This document shows, in pieces, positions 18,552 through 37,213 of a stretch of DNA of 64,000 nt. The stretch lies in contig VXNJ01000010.1 of the NCBI GenBank assembly GCA_009840625.1, positions 186,001-250,000 of the forward strand. Reading direction: 5' to 3'. The position numbers were made by a program, and so were the translations under genes. The notes beneath the pieces are model-generated. The model was not told where the DNA came from. It worked only from the letters and a program-made list of their open reading frames with translations, and did not search any database. The stretch comes from Chloroflexota bacterium. Lineage in GTDB: Bacteria; Chloroflexota; UBA11872; VXNJ01. How positions within the stretch are numbered: the first letter of the stretch is position 1; each line of letters opens with the position of its first letter.

Positions 18552-18677
18552 TCACTTCTTCGCTTTCTTCTGCTTTGGCTTCGGTCGGTAGTTGAGCAAT
18601 GCAGCTCCGACTTGCTTGGGTGTAGCAGCACCGTAATTAGCTCTCCGTCCGCGCTTGCGCTTCTTCTGTTCAGACAT
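18552..18677 (-). CDS. Very small basic protein of the transposon (41 residues)
   Basis: ATG at 18677 and TGA at 18552-18554, just inside the left inverted repeat. The 41 residues are highly basic: they start MSEQKKRKRGRRANYG and end PKPKQKKAKK. The middle reads ATPKQVGAALLNYRP. The start overlaps the preceding gene by 8 bases, so coupled translation is likely. The composition suggests nucleic-acid binding, but no family is recognised. Confidence 0.65.
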   Translation of the reverse strand: MSEQKKRKRGRRANYGAATPKQVGAALLNYRPKPKQKKAKK

Positions 18678-18939
18678 GAATAAAACTGCTTTCTCTTTCT
18701 TGGCTCACTGCACGATACAGCGTGCCGAATTCACTTTGTTTTGAGACGGCTTTGCCCTCTTCAACGCACGTATCTAGCACGGCGACGACAAAGCCGTAGC
18801 CATCACTTCCAGCATTCATCTCGTGCGCAACTTGCGCTGCTGGGAAATACCAATCCTGTTCAGAATCAAGTTCGCACAAGTCGATAAGTGTTTGAAGCAC
18901 TTTCGCTACCGTTACGCGTATCTTGTCAGGACCCGCCAT
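18670..18939 (-). CDS. Small unknown protein of the transposon (89 residues)
   Basis: I choose ATG 18939 because it shares one base with the HNH stop codon (TGATG), which means coupled translation. The protein begins MAGPDKIRVTVAKVLQTLID and looks like a compact mixed alpha/beta or winged-helix-sized domain. Segments LDSEQDWYFPAAQVAHEM and FVVAVLDTCVEEGKAV are seen. No family is recognised. An upstream ATG at 19029 would overlap the HNH gene in another frame and is less likely. Position between the HNH and the 41-residue gene suggests a partner role in the passenger unit. Confidence 0.65.
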   Translation of the reverse strand: MAGPDKIRVTVAKVLQTLIDLCELDSEQDWYFPAAQVAHEMNAGSDGYGFVVAVLDTCVEEGKAVSKQSEFGTLYRAVSQERESSFIHV

Positions 18940-19196
18940 CACGCACCACCTTTCACCATGTATCCACGCTGACGATTCACGCGCCGCAAACCAGAAAGCG
19001 TGTAGATATTCGACTTGACTTGATTGCACGGCCCACAGAGCAATACACGATTGGTGATGTGGTTCATTCCGCCGTCTGCTCGTGGAGTGTTGTGATCGAG
19101 TTGCAAATAGCGCGGATCGTCAAATTCGCGGTCGCAACCCTGGCACTTCGAGCCGTGTTGAGCGATCAGAAAATCAAGTATTTCAGCACGAGTCAT
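18939..19196 (-). CDS. HNH endonuclease (possibly the C-terminal domain of the methyltransferase)
   Basis: 85 residues from ATG 19196. A zinc-bound HNH nuclease core is clear: C18-x2-C21, LQLDHNTPRADGG with Asp34-His35, then Asn49 and LLCGPCN with C54-x2-C57. There is no ribosome site before the ATG. The frame is open upstream as far as a 9-base C run (minus strand) at 19283-19275, where the methyltransferase frame ends just beyond. Skipping one base of that run joins the two proteins in frame. A separate gene is possible but a methyltransferase-HNH fusion is likelier. It would cut or nick DNA. Confidence 0.85.
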   Translation of the reverse strand: MTRAEILDFLIAQHGSKCQGCDREFDDPRYLQLDHNTPRADGGMNHITNRVLLCGPCNQVKSNIYTLSGLRRVNRQRGYMVKGGA

Positions 19197-19263
19197 ACGC
19201 TTGCCGGGAGGCTCTGCGTAACGCTCTGTGACTTGAAATGCAGGAACTGCTGGAGCGCCATTG

Positions 19264-20307
19264 TCAGTGCGGAAGGGGGGGGGTATTTTGATAGTGGATT
19301 TGACCGAAATTGATCAGCCACTCGCGTTCGCCTTCGGGACCTAGTAGTCCTTCATTCTGTAAACGGTCAATTACGATTTGATGCGCGTGATTCCAAATAT
19401 CGACACCAACCCATTGACGCTTTAAGCGTTCAGCAGCTATCAAAGTAGTTGCGCAACCACAGAACGGGTCAAGCACTATGTCGTTTTCGTTCGAGCTAGC
19501 GACAACTACGCGCTCAAGTAGTGCTAACGGTTTCTGAGTTGGATAGCCAGTAGATTCACTTCTTAGGGGTGTATTGGCAAGCATTGAGGGAATGTCGCCC
19601 CACAGATTGCCGATAAATCGTCCGTGATCAGCGTAGTATCGATACTTTTTGCCGCGAATCACGCGCTCTCGATAACGTCTGCCGTGTTCATCTCGCGCAT
19701 TGAAATGCATTGAGAGGCTTGTTTCTGCGAAGGGGCGGCGGCACATCGGTTCATCAGGATTAAACGTGTGCTTTGACATGCGCACGCAATAGACGAGCAG
19801 CATGTCATTTTCGTTGCCCCACCGACGACGACTTTTGACTCCGTTTTGCTTGTTCCAGACGATTTCGCCAAGAAATTGCTTGATGCCAAAAATCGCGTCA
19901 AGCAGTGCTTTCAGGTAATGATTGGCAGTTGAATCGCAATGCAGATAAAGTGTTCCGTCTTTTCTAAGCACTCGATGCATTTCCAATAAGCGCACTCCCA
20001 TGAAGCACAGAAATGCGCCCATATCGTCGCCCCAAGTAGCGCGAGCAGCGTCAATTACTTCCCAAACGGCGGGGCAATCGTCTCTGATTTGATCAATCCA
20101 CTCGCCCTCAACATCGTTTTTCCAAGACCATCGATCTTGAAATTTCGCGCCAGCAGCAAGACTGTCTGGAGTCGCGTGAAAATCGCGCCCCTTGTTGAAC
20201 GGCGGATCAGTCGCAATTAGATGAACGCTCTCTGAATTCATTCCGCGCAGAACTGCTAAGTTGTCGTGATGAAAGAGCGTTCGATTTGCCCAGTTTGGCT
20301 CAGCCAT
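19264..20307 (-). CDS. Beta-class DNA methyltransferase (N6-adenine or N4-cytosine)
   Basis: 347 residues as read. Motif order is that of beta-class enzymes: catalytic motif IV DPPF at 34-37 (TDPPFNKGRDF), a target-recognition region between about 140 and 250, motif X TQKPLALLERV at 257-267 and the AdoMet motif I DPFCGCATTLIAAERL at 280-295. The catalytic DPPF does not decide between adenine and cytosine. The start ATG at 20307 overlaps the transposase stop by 8 bases. The last residues (TPPLPH) come from reading through a C9 run and probably result from a shift; one base fewer continues into the HNH domain. No separate restriction enzyme gene is present. Confidence 0.92.
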   Translation of the reverse strand: MAEPNWANRTLFHHDNLAVLRGMNSESVHLIATDPPFNKGRDFHATPDSLAAGAKFQDRWSWKNDVEGEWIDQIRDDCPAVWEVIDAARATWGDDMGAFLCFMGVRLLEMHRVLRKDGTLYLHCDSTANHYLKALLDAIFGIKQFLGEIVWNKQNGVKSRRRWGNENDMLLVYCVRMSKHTFNPDEPMCRRPFAETSLSMHFNARDEHGRRYRERVIRGKKYRYYADHGRFIGNLWGDIPSMLANTPLRSESTGYPTQKPLALLERVVVASSNENDIVLDPFCGCATTLIAAERLKRQWVGVDIWNHAHQIVIDRLQNEGLLGPEGEREWLINFGQIHYQNTPPLPH

Positions 20308-21256
20308 TCGAGATCAATTCCCTGTAGCGTAGTCTCTTGCCGACCATCCCGCGAGAGATGATCGCCATTTGCTCTACAGTGTCGCGATCACGAATGTTGT
20401 GGCGGCCCGCGAACTCGTTGACGTAGCGCTGAACGTGCTTGGCCGAAAAGTGGTGGAACGTTCCGTGATAACCACGCTTTAGCGTTGCCCAAAACGATTC
20501 AAGTCCGTTCGTGTGAGCTTGCCCATTGACGTATTCGCCAACCGAGTGCTTGACTGCTTGGTGATTCGGAAGTCCCTGGTAAGCTCTCGCGTCGTCTGTG
20601 TAGATAGTCGCGCCGCGCTGAGTTCGTTCGTGAATGAATCCGCGCAGTGTCGAGCCGTCCGTCCGTTCAACGACAGAAGCAACGACAGAAGCAACGACAT
20701 GACCAGTGTTGCGATCTCTGATTCCGGCGACGGCGGTCTTGCCAACCGCGCCGCGCCCAGTCAGCAAATTGCGCCGACTTTTGGGCATGTTCTTGCGCTT
20801 GCCGCCGATGTAGGTTTCATCGACTTCCACAGGACCTGCGAACGGGGTTATTGGGCCCTTGGAAAACGCTTCACGAATGCGCTGCTGCATGTGCCAAGCA
20901 GCTTTCTGCGTGATTTTCAAGTCGCGGTGCAACTTCATGGAGCTAACGCCCTTGAGCGAAGTAACGTCTAAGTAGATTGCGTAAACCCACTTGCGAAGCG
21001 GGAGCGGAGAGCCTTCCATTACAGTGCCAGTCTTGACACTGAAATACTTCTTGCAATCACGGCAGCGATAAGGCATCGTTTTGTGATTGGCTTCGTGCGT
21101 ATTGACTGATCCGCAGCGAGCACAGGGGCGCTCATCGTTCGGCCACAGAATGCATTCAAACCACTCACGAGCAGCGTTTTCGTCTGGAAACATGTCTGCT
21201 AATTCAAGCAGCGAGATTCCATCGCGGTAATGTCGTCCGGGAGCTTTCTGTGTCAT
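20300..21256 (-). CDS. IS1595-family transposase
   Basis: 318 residues. The N-terminal zinc ribbon has C45-x2-C48 and C65-x2-C68 in CARCGS and CRDCKKYFSVKTGT. The ISXO2-like catalytic domain follows with Asp146 in VEVDETYIGGK, Asp221/222 in IYTDDARAY, and Glu253 with Lys260 in HTNGLESFWATLKRG, then HGTFHHFSAKH. All active-site residues are present, so it looks functional. GAAGGG lies 7 bases before the ATG. A 12-base tandem duplication gives the repeated SVVASVVA near residue 190. It moves the element by cutting at the 24-bp ends. Confidence 0.95.
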   Translation of the reverse strand: MTQKAPGRHYRDGISLLELADMFPDENAAREWFECILWPNDERPCARCGSVNTHEANHKTMPYRCRDCKKYFSVKTGTVMEGSPLPLRKWVYAIYLDVTSLKGVSSMKLHRDLKITQKAAWHMQQRIREAFSKGPITPFAGPVEVDETYIGGKRKNMPKSRRNLLTGRGAVGKTAVAGIRDRNTGHVVASVVASVVERTDGSTLRGFIHERTQRGATIYTDDARAYQGLPNHQAVKHSVGEYVNGQAHTNGLESFWATLKRGYHGTFHHFSAKHVQRYVNEFAGRHNIRDRDTVEQMAIISRGMVGKRLRYRELISNG

Positions 21257-34656: not shown

Positions 34657-35808
34657 TCAGCCAAAGGGTTCCGGCCACGCCGTGAACTGGTCCATGATCT
34701 CAAGCTGGGCGCGGACAATGCCGGATTCCACGACGATTAGATCCATATCCTCGAGCTCACGCAGGTCGCGGCGCAGCGTCCGGGAACCGACGTGCCGGTG
34801 GATTAACGCAAGCGGATGGTGTCCGCCCAACAGGTCGGCGAAGGCAACCGTTCCAGAACCGAGTTCGAGCAGGAATGACAATTGACGTTCGCCGGGAGAC
34901 GTCCCGAGCCTTCCCGCGATCCGCAACCGGTCGATCGCGTAGTCGCGGAATGCGCTGATTCGTACCTTGTCGATCAGCGTTCTGCGCACTTCCTCAAGCT
35001 CGGCAATCAACCCCTCGAGTGCGAAGTCGATGAACGGGCCGATGTCGGGGTCCGATTCGAATCGGACTTGATTCAACCGGTTGACGTATTCGTTTCGATT
35101 CTGGTAGTAGAAGTTGGCCAGCGAGTAGAACCCGGTCACGTTGATGCGTGCCTGAAAAAGCAGGTAACACTCGACGGCCCGTGCGGTGCGTCCGTTGCCG
35201 TCTCCAAACGGGTGGATGCTCACCAACAGGAAATGGGCCGCGACCGCCCGCACGATCGGGTCCAGGGACCGGCCCCTGCCGCGATTCAGCCAGTCCATGA
35301 ATCCAGTCATCAGACCCGGGATCTCACCCGGCGCCGGGTAGCGAAAAGAACCCCCGCTCTCGACGGCCGAGTGGCGGCGGTACCTGCCTGGATCGTTGTC
35401 GGGGTAGCTGATGTATTGGCTAAGGACCTGATGGAATTCGCGGATCAGCTCCTCGGTCAGCGGCCGGTCGGGCTCGGCCGTCAATAGTCCCTGGATGCGT
35501 TGTATCAGCGCGTAAGCATTCCGCACCTCAGTCTGTTCGCGCTCACGGCCGACCGGCAGCACAGGGGCGCTAGGTTCGGAATTGACTACATCTGCCACTT
35601 CCTCTTCGGTGAGTTCGACCCCTTCAATTCCGGTCGTGCCGCGGACTGCCCTAATGATGTTCAAGTTGTTCAGGCGCTCGCGCACATGCGGAGGGATGGG
35701 AATGGCAGTCAATACCTGAGTGACTGCGCAGATCGCGGCGATTTTTTCGCGCCGCCCTTGGCGGGAGAGGTCCGCAACTAAGTCGAAATGGACCTTCCAA
35801 CCCGGCAT
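34657..35808 (-). CDS. Fic-domain protein (AMPylator-type, self-inhibited)
   Basis: 383 residues. The Fic core motif HPFGDGNGRTAR is at 199-210, with the catalytic His199 and Arg210 and the anion-binding GNGR. An inhibitory helix motif [ST]xxxE[GN] appears earlier as TTGIEG (58-63), so the protein should hold itself inactive. The C-terminal 100 residues look like a winged helix (GTSPGERQLSFLLELG, RTLRRDLRELEDMDLIVV). The role is attachment of AMP or a similar group to a target protein. ATG 35808 is 19 bases from an array of palindromes that may be its operator. Confidence 0.94.
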   Translation of the reverse strand: MPGWKVHFDLVADLSRQGRREKIAAICAVTQVLTAIPIPPHVRERLNNLNIIRAVRGTTGIEGVELTEEEVADVVNSEPSAPVLPVGREREQTEVRNAYALIQRIQGLLTAEPDRPLTEELIREFHQVLSQYISYPDNDPGRYRRHSAVESGGSFRYPAPGEIPGLMTGFMDWLNRGRGRSLDPIVRAVAAHFLLVSIHPFGDGNGRTARAVECYLLFQARINVTGFYSLANFYYQNRNEYVNRLNQVRFESDPDIGPFIDFALEGLIAELEEVRRTLIDKVRISAFRDYAIDRLRIAGRLGTSPGERQLSFLLELGSGTVAFADLLGGHHPLALIHRHVGSRTLRRDLRELEDMDLIVVESGIVRAQLEIMDQFTAWPEPFG

Positions 35809-36127
35809 CCTGATCCTCCAAGTACGTTGACAATGTCAGTGACACTGTCACGAATCGTAATGACCGTCAATTGGACAACGATAAGTGGACATTGGGCTGA
35901 TGATCACGAAAACAGCGGTGACAACGACGGTGACGATGTCACGCTTGACGTCAATAGTCGTTGGACCTCCGGAAACCGAAATTCGGGACACTGCGGATCG
36001 AAGAAACCGGATCCCATATCGCCGGCTCACGGCAATTGGTTCCGGCGGATTGACCCTGTCGTGTTTACAGCCCCTGGGCCAAAAATCAGCGCAGGATCCA
36101 GGCCGAATGCGCCCGGAGGCTCATTGG
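35809..36127. other. Intergenic region with palindromes and no gene
   Basis: 319 bases between the Fic start and the stop of the oxidoreductase gene. It holds the palindrome array in its left part. The rest shows no tRNA, coding motif or terminator that I can support. Confidence 0.6.
35828..35953. promoter_or_regulatory. Array of TGAC...GTCA palindromes upstream of the Fic gene
   Basis: Five perfect palindromes of TGAC and GTCA are seen: TGACAATGTCA at 35828-35838, TGACACTGTCA at 35840-35850, TGACCGTCA at 35861-35869, TGACGATGTCA at 35931-35941 and TGACGTCA at 35946-35953. The two nearest the gene begin 19 bases before its ATG. They look like binding sites for a dimeric DNA-binding protein, possibly the C-terminal domain of the Fic protein itself. 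Confidence 0.55.
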
Positions 36128-37213
36128 CTAGGGCCGATCGAGATGGGCTTTGATGATTTCAATGATCAGATCGATGTCATGGCCGGTTTCACTGATCGGC
36201 GAACGGGGCCGCTCGCCGCGCGTGATGCACGCGTGGAAATGGCGTAGCTCGCGGCGGAAGGGGCTTTCCCAGTCCAGGGCCGGCTCGGTTGAATACGTCG
36301 AACCTGATTTGTCGATGCCGTGGATGCGGATCCGGGAGTGCGCGCGGGAGAACCCGGTTTCGTAGGAGATCAACACGCGTTTGCGGGGGCTGTAGACCTC
36401 CAGCGTTTCGTGAAAGTTCCACAGGTCGGGGAGATCTACCCAGGTGGCCACGCAGCGAAACCCCGGAGCGTACTGGAGGGTGGTTGATACGGCCAGCCCG
36501 TCCTGCCAGATCTCGGTGCTGGCTACCGTTGCCGGCCGCCCGAACAGGGCGCGCAGCCCGTATAGATCGTGGATCAGGCTTCCCGAAAGGAGCCCGAAGG
36601 CCCGAATGATCGCCGGCTCGACTTCACCAATCGCTTCGTGAATCGCCGCCGCGCGGGCGGCGCTGTTTTGCTCGACCACCGCCGGCGGGACATCGTCGAA
36701 GCTCCGAGTGCGGAACTGTGCCACGTGCAGGTCATTTCTCGGGTGCAGGTGGTTGACCTGCACGAAGCGCACATCCTTCATCGACGAAACTTCGCCCCGG
36801 GCACGCTCAAAAGCCGGTTCGTAGAGCTTGGTGTAACCGGCCAGGGCGACTTTGCCCGCGCTCGCGACCGCCTCGTTGATGGCGCTGGATTCGGCCCGCG
36901 AAAAGCAGATCGGTTTTTCGACCAAGACGTGCTTGCCGGCCTCCAGGCAGTCGATGATCGCCGCAGTCTTCGGATCCGACTGGCACAGCAGGACCGCGTC
37001 GATGTCGGCGGCCAGCATCTCGCGGTGATCGGTGAACTTCAAGGGCACGTGGAACAGCCGGGCGGCGTGGTCGACCGCGCCAGGGGAAACGTCGCAGACC
37101 GCTCTCAGTTCAAACTCCTCGGCCAATTCGGACAGGAACGGGAGGTGCTGGACCTGGGCGATGGCGCCGCAGCCGATGACTCCGATCCGGACCCTGGGCT
37201 CGGCCGCAGTCAT
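36128..37213 (-). CDS. Gfo/Idh/MocA-family oxidoreductase
   Basis: 361 residues from ATG 37213. The N-terminal Rossmann motif IGVIGCGAIAQVQHLP and the EKP motif in GKHVLVEKPICF are clear. A substrate His region occurs in GSLIHDLYGLRALFG. A longer frame to 37825 encodes nothing family-like. The start overlaps the cupin gene stop by 4 bases (ATGA), so the pair is translationally coupled. It oxidises a sugar or a related alcohol with NAD(P). Confidence 0.9.
   Translation of the reverse strand: MTAAEPRVRIGVIGCGAIAQVQHLPFLSELAEEFELRAVCDVSPGAVDHAARLFHVPLKFTDHREMLAADIDAVLLCQSDPKTAAIIDCLEAGKHVLVEKPICFSRAESSAINEAVASAGKVALAGYTKLYEPAFERARGEVSSMKDVRFVQVNHLHPRNDLHVAQFRTRSFDDVPPAVVEQNSAARAAAIHEAIGEVEPAIIRAFGLLSGSLIHDLYGLRALFGRPATVASTEIWQDGLAVSTTLQYAPGFRCVATWVDLPDLWNFHETLEVYSPRKRVLISYETGFSRAHSRIRIHGIDKSGSTYSTEPALDWESPFRRELRHFHACITRGERPRSPISETGHDIDLIIEIIKAHLDRP

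What the first reader, a model, noticed from the sequence alone, without database searches (positions are those of the whole stretch)
35828..35953. Five TGAC...GTCA palindromes before the Fic gene
Five perfect palindromes with 0, 1 or 3 central bases lie within 126 bases, two of them side by side next to the start codon. Their number and similarity exceed what a chance GC-rich stretch would give. They suggest cooperative binding of a regulator, perhaps the winged-helix end of the Fic protein. The chance expectation was not computed.
Basis: seen in the sequence. Interest (0 to 1): 0.5.

Follow-up and report, generated by a model that had tools for sequence, protein, structure and literature searches.

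The report
Self-control switch of a Fic enzyme
The palindromes are a local form of a repeated DNA tag, one copy every 12 bases, that stands before a family of Fic enzyme genes in many bacterial phyla and changes together with the enzyme's own DNA-reading helix, so the enzyme very probably switches its own gene.

Summary
In detail: five TGAC-N(0,1,3)-GTCA palindromes lie at 35828-35953, upstream of fic (34657-35808, minus). The 64-kb window holds three others; none of 5000 shuffles of the intergenic region gave more than 2. The basic unit is a GACA half-site repeated every 12 bp; palindromes appear where half-sites on both strands interleave. In 80 homologous loci from many phyla, 54 of 77 testable upstream regions hold a 12-bp GACA pair, against 0/69, 2/75 and 0/80 control regions. 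Fic paralogues of other subfamilies have none (0/20). The base before GACA follows residues 343 and 346 of the Fic protein's own recognition helix. A rule noted in advance predicted that base in 30 of 30 scorable new loci, 17 of 17 after redundancy removal; of 9 tree-independent contrasts, 5 fit fully. So the C-terminal winged helix very probably binds the array and autoregulates fic. The direction (repression) is inferred from CccR, an autorepressing Fic-HTH protein, and from site position. New variant of a known kind; binding was not testable.

The parts
34657..35808 (-). fic gene, 383 aa: Fic/AMPylase domain plus C-terminal winged helix-turn-helix
   Evidence: Pfam Fic E 2.2e-19; model pLDDT 91.6, pTM 0.86; structural relatives 4rgl, 8cil, 7xux, 3eqx
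35188..35214 (-). Fic motif HPFGDGNGR (residues 199-207), complete
   Evidence: translation; H199 to R207 invariant in 33 sequences
34708..34899 (-). C-terminal winged helix-turn-helix, residues 304-367
   Evidence: secondary structure of the model; Pfam HTH_DeoR below cut-off, E 0.095
34747..34785 (-). recognition helix, residues 342-354; R343 and R346 are the residues that covary with the operator
35828..35851 (.). start-proximal array: two GACANTGTC dyads 12 bp apart
   Evidence: the only place in the 2.27-Mb genome at up to 3 mismatches
35861..35891 (.). middle sites: TGACCGTCA palindrome (35861-35869) and two further half-sites (35874-35877, 35888-35891); assignment weaker
35918..35953 (.). 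upstream array: half-sites starting at 35920, 35926, 35932, 35937, 35947 and 35949 (6- and 12-bp steps)
   Evidence: lines up with the upstream array of relatives

Best explanation
The palindromes are the operator of a self-regulating Fic protein. Half-sites with core GACA lie every 12 bp (about one helical turn), in two arrays: one upstream and one close to the start codon. The C-terminal winged helix of the Fic protein reads each half-site with its recognition helix; residues 343 and 346 choose the base before GACA (R343 with R346 gives TGACA here). Neighbouring subunits on 12-bp-spaced sites should bind cooperatively. Shown: the array, its conservation, its restriction to this Fic subfamily, and covariation with the helix. 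Inferred: binding, cooperativity, and that the result is repression of fic.
For: 12-bp GACA pairs upstream in 54 of 77 homologous loci vs 0/69, 2/75, 0/80 controls; pairs peak at lags 12, 24, 36 (131, 54, 18). Loci with an [RK]TxxRD helix: array in 45 of 53; other helices 8 of 23 (L069 left out, protein short). Of 362 protein columns, R343 is the best predictor of the base before GACA. Rule noted, then tested on 79 new loci: 30 of 30 scorable majority bases right; 7 ties and 42 loci without array not scored; 23 of 23 after dropping 7 near discovery loci, 17 of 17 non-redundant. K/R at 343: array in 36 of 52 new loci; other residues 1 of 27. Near-minimal natural contrast: L067 SEKTARRDL with GGACA, L219 SERTARRDL with TGACA. 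Other Fic subfamilies: 0 of 20. G006: catalytic region of fic lost, winged-helix coding region and both arrays kept. CccR, a Fic-HTH protein, binds and represses its own promoter (PMC9755527, passages).
Against: No binding data. Six of 76 taxa break the rule (L037, L063, L076, L083, L096, L102), all discovery loci; only 5 of 9 tree-independent contrasts fit on both sides. In the test set the C rule was confirmed only in near-duplicates of a discovery locus. 8 of 53 loci with a matching helix lack an array, as do 16 of 52 in the test set. Array half-sites are not generally the -35 box: no peak at spacer 17 in 87 loci.
Confidence: 0.83

Rival explanations
1. The array is the binding site of another, unlinked regulator that controls fic; the link to the Fic helix is only shared ancestry.
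For: No binding was tested; helix and operator are both inherited, and only 9 independent contrasts exist, 4 of which fail on one side.
Against: Across phyla the shared feature is the downstream fic gene; other Fic subfamilies lack the array; in the own genome the start-proximal pattern occurs once; the best-covarying column of 362 lies at the start of the recognition helix; prediction 17 of 17 non-redundant.
Confidence: 0.1
2. The array is an allosteric DNA cofactor rather than, or besides, an operator: DNA binding switches AMPylation or deAMPylation on, as reported for Coxiella CbFic2.
For: CbFic2 activity is induced by DNA binding and DNA is bound through its HTH (PMC10628234, title and passages); the fold is related (8cil, Z 29.0, rmsd 5.0, 332 aligned); the inhibitory TTGIEG sequence and the complete Fic motif suggest a regulated enzyme.
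Against: CbFic2 was tested with random DNA; nothing here measures activity. Position just upstream of the start codon fits a promoter operator.
Confidence: 0.25
3. Chance cluster or remnant of a mobile element (terminal repeats).
For: The motif alone is only mildly enriched genome-wide.
Against: Shuffles; conservation in homologues and absence in control regions; the start-proximal pattern is single-copy in the genome.
Confidence: 0.01

Closest known systems
CccR of Yersinia pseudotuberculosis (PMC9755527; passages read; PDB 7xux is probably this protein, my inference from length and description)
   Same: Fic domain plus C-terminal HTH; binds inverted repeats in its own promoter and represses itself; S59/E63 inhibitory pair.
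   Different: Its operator is one pair of arms AGATAATCAT-N26-ATGATAATCT, not a 12-bp GACA array; secreted by a type VI system; no family-wide code in the passages read.
CbFic2 of Coxiella burnetii (PMC10628234; passages read; PDB 8cil)
   Same: Fic plus C-terminal HTH that binds DNA with nanomolar affinity; similar overall fold (Z 29.0, rmsd 5.0, 332 aligned).
   Different: Tested with random DNA only; no specific site given in the passages read; the authors state that SoFic DNA binding had not been shown.
SoFic (PDB 3eqx; NF046030)
   Same: Fic plus C-terminal winged helix.
   Different: Score 44.3 against a cut-off of 550.
NanR operator, three GGTATA repeats bound by three dimers (PMC8012715; search listing and start of abstract only)
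   Same: A short repeat array bound by several copies of a repressor.
   Different: Unrelated GntR-type protein, different site.

Membership tests
Fic AMP-transferases (Pfam PF02661) | Fic domain above Pfam cut-off | tested here: met
   70.5 bits, cut-off 24
Fic AMP-transferases (Pfam PF02661) | Complete HPFx(D/E)GN(G/K)R motif | tested here: met
   HPFGDGNGR, residues 199-207
Fic AMP-transferases (Pfam PF02661) | AMP-transferase activity | not testable with these tools
   needs protein
Class II Fic (built-in N-terminal inhibitory helix) | (S/T)xxxE(G/N) N-terminal of the Fic motif (motif recalled) | tested here: met
   T58-TGI-E62-G63 read from the translation; E62 and G63 invariant in 33 sequences
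Self-regulating Fic-HTH proteins (CccR-like) | C-terminal HTH | tested here: met
   model, residues 304-367
Self-regulating Fic-HTH proteins (CccR-like) | Repeats in own promoter region that go with the protein | tested here: met
Self-regulating Fic-HTH proteins (CccR-like) | Direct binding and autorepression | not testable with these tools
   needs gel shift and reporter
Self-regulating Fic-HTH proteins (CccR-like) | CccR-type site, two 10-bp arms 26 bp apart | tested here: not met
   sites here are GACA half-sites at 12-bp steps; so it works like CccR but does not have the same operator type
SoFic equivalog (NF046030) | score at or above 550 | tested here: not met
   44.3 bits; the PADLOC SoFic model hits at E 2e-45 without a curated cut-off
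Toxin-antitoxin module with separate antitoxin | adjacent antitoxin gene | tested here: inconclusive
   319-bp gap upstream to an oxidoreductase gene and a convergent methyltransferase-like gene downstream; small ORFs were not analysed

The most novel reading that the evidence does not exclude
A large, phylum-crossing subfamily of Fic enzymes carries a winged helix with a readable DNA code: residue 343 (K or R) and residue 346 set the base before GACA in a 12-bp iteron array at its own promoter. Several Fic subunits line up on the array, and this ordered assembly couples enzyme state (inhibited or active, AMPylating or deAMPylating) to its own transcription, so the promoter is both operator and sensor of the enzyme's state.
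Probability: 0.25. Interest if true: 0.8.

Novelty: new variant of a known kind. Interest (0 to 1): 0.6.

Why it matters
Many Fic proteins carry a DNA-binding domain whose target is unknown; the 2009 Fido paper guessed that such domains regulate fic (PMC2686095, passages), and in 2023 DNA binding by SoFic was still undemonstrated (PMC10628234, passages). A conserved operator and a residue-to-base rule give a direct, cheap test (binding, helix swap) for a whole enzyme family and let the operator of an unstudied member be predicted from its protein sequence.

Tried and rejected
Array half-site as the -35 box: true-looking in a few loci (TTGACA with 17 bp to a TATAAT-like box in L052, L053, L056, L088, L098; TTGACG-N17-NANNNT in 10 of 12 close relatives, L007-L016), but over 87 array-positive loci there is no peak at spacer 17 (7 loci; spacer 29 gives 10, 31 gives 9), so it is not claimed as a rule. 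In the window a TTGACG-N17-CAGTGT exists but is weak, and the promoter scan found nothing in the array region at its threshold.

Single palindromes as a regulon: GYGACANTGTCRC occurs at 33 places in 23 genomes (reversed control 7); 10 lie before intact fic homologues and 2 before the G006 remnant; of the other 21 places, 19 were fetched and 120 bp on each side examined: none has an array, one (L162) has a single 12-bp pair. Gene context was looked at only for L152 and L153.

Mutual information at other bases: at -3, -2 and +4 to +7 the top column is not in the recognition helix; only -1 gives a helix residue at rank 1. Seven base positions were tried, so the rank-1 result should be read with that in mind; the later test on new loci is the stronger evidence.

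RNA families: only a tRNA in the window. Viral contigs: 9 of 21 tested upstream regions have a 12-bp pair (22 of 37 loci examined, one too short). Plasmid and phage relatives: of 5 fetched (39 hits listed), one, Psychrobacter plasmid pA17P3 (L193), has a clear 12-bp array. Families or folds missing from the fold searches are not evidence of absence. Literature: seven searches showed no paper on a 12-bp array before fic genes; only open-licence papers are held.

Dropped rows: L006 (in-frame TAG) and L036 (stop in range) from alignments; L046 and L069 too short; L046, L113 and one more locus without 330 bp upstream not in the 77; L234 (two stops) from the test; L209-L214 as re-fetched discovery loci.

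Full report
OBSERVATION. The window fic gene runs 34657-35808 on the minus strand and has the Fic domain. The five palindromes are present at the stated coordinates; the 64-kb window has only three others of this form, and none of 5000 shuffles of 35809-36127 gave more than two. The next gene upstream, an oxidoreductase on the same strand, ends at 36128, leaving 319 bp.

UNIT. On the coding strand the half-sites stand in 12-bp register: -144/-132 and -41/-29 (GAC), -127/-115, -69/-57 and -36/-24 (GTC). The 4-mer self-match peaks at lag 12 (9 matches; 1 of 3000 shuffles reaches it at lag 12, 26 of 3000 at any lag from 5 to 39). So the palindromes come from half-sites on both strands of a 12-bp array.

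CLOSE RELATIVES. Of 61 genomes searched, 41 had some Fic match and 12 besides the own genome had a near full-length homologue at 40-45% identity, one of them (L006) with an in-frame TAG. Their upstream regions hold two arrays of (G)CGACA/TGTCG(C)-like half-sites around a conserved ACAGGTTT; the window sequence lines up with the same layout though it lacks that core. TTGACG-N17-NANNNT ends 7-8 bp before ACAGGTTT in 10 of 12 relatives, which fits a promoter between the arrays in that lineage. In G006 the catalytic part of the gene is missing while the winged-helix coding region and both arrays remain; the frame from the original ATG is broken, so whether the 120-aa TTG-started frame is expressed is unknown.

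DISTANT RELATIVES. The search for related loci returned 80 loci (532 confirmed relatives, best 80 kept), with record titles from Chloroflexi, Desulfobacterales, Verrucomicrobia, Planctomycetota, Acidimicrobiia, Chitinophagaceae, Acidobacterium, Gemmatimonadetes, Spirochaetales and others. In 77 with enough upstream sequence, GACA/TGTC density is 14.9 per kb against 5.3-6.7 in controls, and 54 hold a 12-bp same-strand pair against 0 of 69 far-upstream, 2 of 75 downstream and 0 of 80 in-gene regions. Pairs at lags 12, 24 and 36 number 131, 54 and 18; other lags from 4 to 39 at most 6. With refined start codons the count is 53 of 77: 42 on the coding strand only, 6 on the other, 5 on both. The mixed, palindromic form of the window is thus the minority arrangement.

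LINK TO THE PROTEIN. A model of the Fic protein (pLDDT 91.6) ends in a winged helix-turn-helix, residues 304-367, recognition helix 342-354. Loci whose helix reads [RK]TxxRD have an array in 45 of 53 cases, others in 8 of 23 (not corrected for relatedness). Fic paralogues of other subfamilies in the own and related genomes: 0 of 20, with different inverted repeats instead. Across 53 arrays, 41 with a majority base before GACA, the protein column that best predicts that base is 343, rank 1 of 362. The rule read from that table (K343: G; R343 with Q346: C; R343 with S346: G; R343 with another residue: T) was written down before the test loci were fetched.

TEST. 79 new loci (E up to 1e-40 in the phylum of L067, up to 1e-90 in four others): 52 have K or R at 343 and got a prediction, 27 got none. 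Arrays: 36 of 52 and 1 of 27. Of 37 arrays, 30 have a majority base and all 30 match (17 G, 11 T, 2 C); 7 are ties. Seven of the 30 are within 70% identity of a discovery locus (three identical); without them 23 of 23, and 17 of 17 when redundancy among themselves is removed, all G or T. Over discovery, test and a few further loci together (76 taxa), 6 break the rule. Nine tree-independent contrasts exist; 5 fit on both sides, 4 fail on one side. Control stretches of the test loci: 0 and 3 of 69 with a pair.

SPECIFICITY. The window's start-proximal double dyad is the only match in its genome at up to 3 mismatches. The relatives' upstream array pattern (up to 3 mismatches) was found in 11 of 20 genomes: before fic in 8, before the G006 remnant in 1, elsewhere with 3 mismatches in 2.

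MECHANISM. Most likely the Fic protein binds its own promoter region through the winged helix, several subunits side by side at 12-bp steps, and limits its own synthesis. CccR does this with a different site (PMC9755527, passages). That the effect is repression is inferred from site position and CccR. An additional role of DNA as activator of the enzyme, as in CbFic2 (PMC10628234, passages), is open.

KNOWN OR NEW. That HTH domains might regulate fic was suggested in 2009 (PMC2686095, passages) and shown for CccR. I found no paper on a 12-bp GACA array or a residue-to-base rule for Fic proteins in seven searches of an open-licence library; passages of five papers were read.

Noticed in passing
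window 18670-21256: Low-GC stretch (54-58% vs about 66%) with an ISXO2/IS1595-like transposase ORF (20300-21256, minus), a DNA-methyltransferase-like ORF (19264-20307, minus) and a small ORF (18670-19029); names are by eye and recall from the translations.
   Followed up: no
L152 (G006:C1:750300-753300): fic homologue that has lost its catalytic region but keeps the winged-helix coding region and the whole operator; a possible free-standing regulator or a young pseudogene.
   Followed up: partly
L173-L191: Other Fic subfamilies seem to have their own inverted repeats upstream (for example GTCGTAT...ATACGAC, GTTATT...AATAAC; read by eye), suggesting that self-regulation may be general among HTH-bearing Fic proteins.
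   Followed up: partly
L192 (Gordonia phage Marteena): Phage Fic gene 34 lies beside a tyrosine integrase gene, where a repressor often sits; helix GPRTPTRDL but no GACA array seen in the 260 bp upstream.
   Followed up: no
L280, L282-L294: Bacteroidota-phylum homologues with methionine, glutamine or leucine at position 343 (for example SEMTARRDL) lack GACA arrays; a different operator is expected.
   Followed up: no
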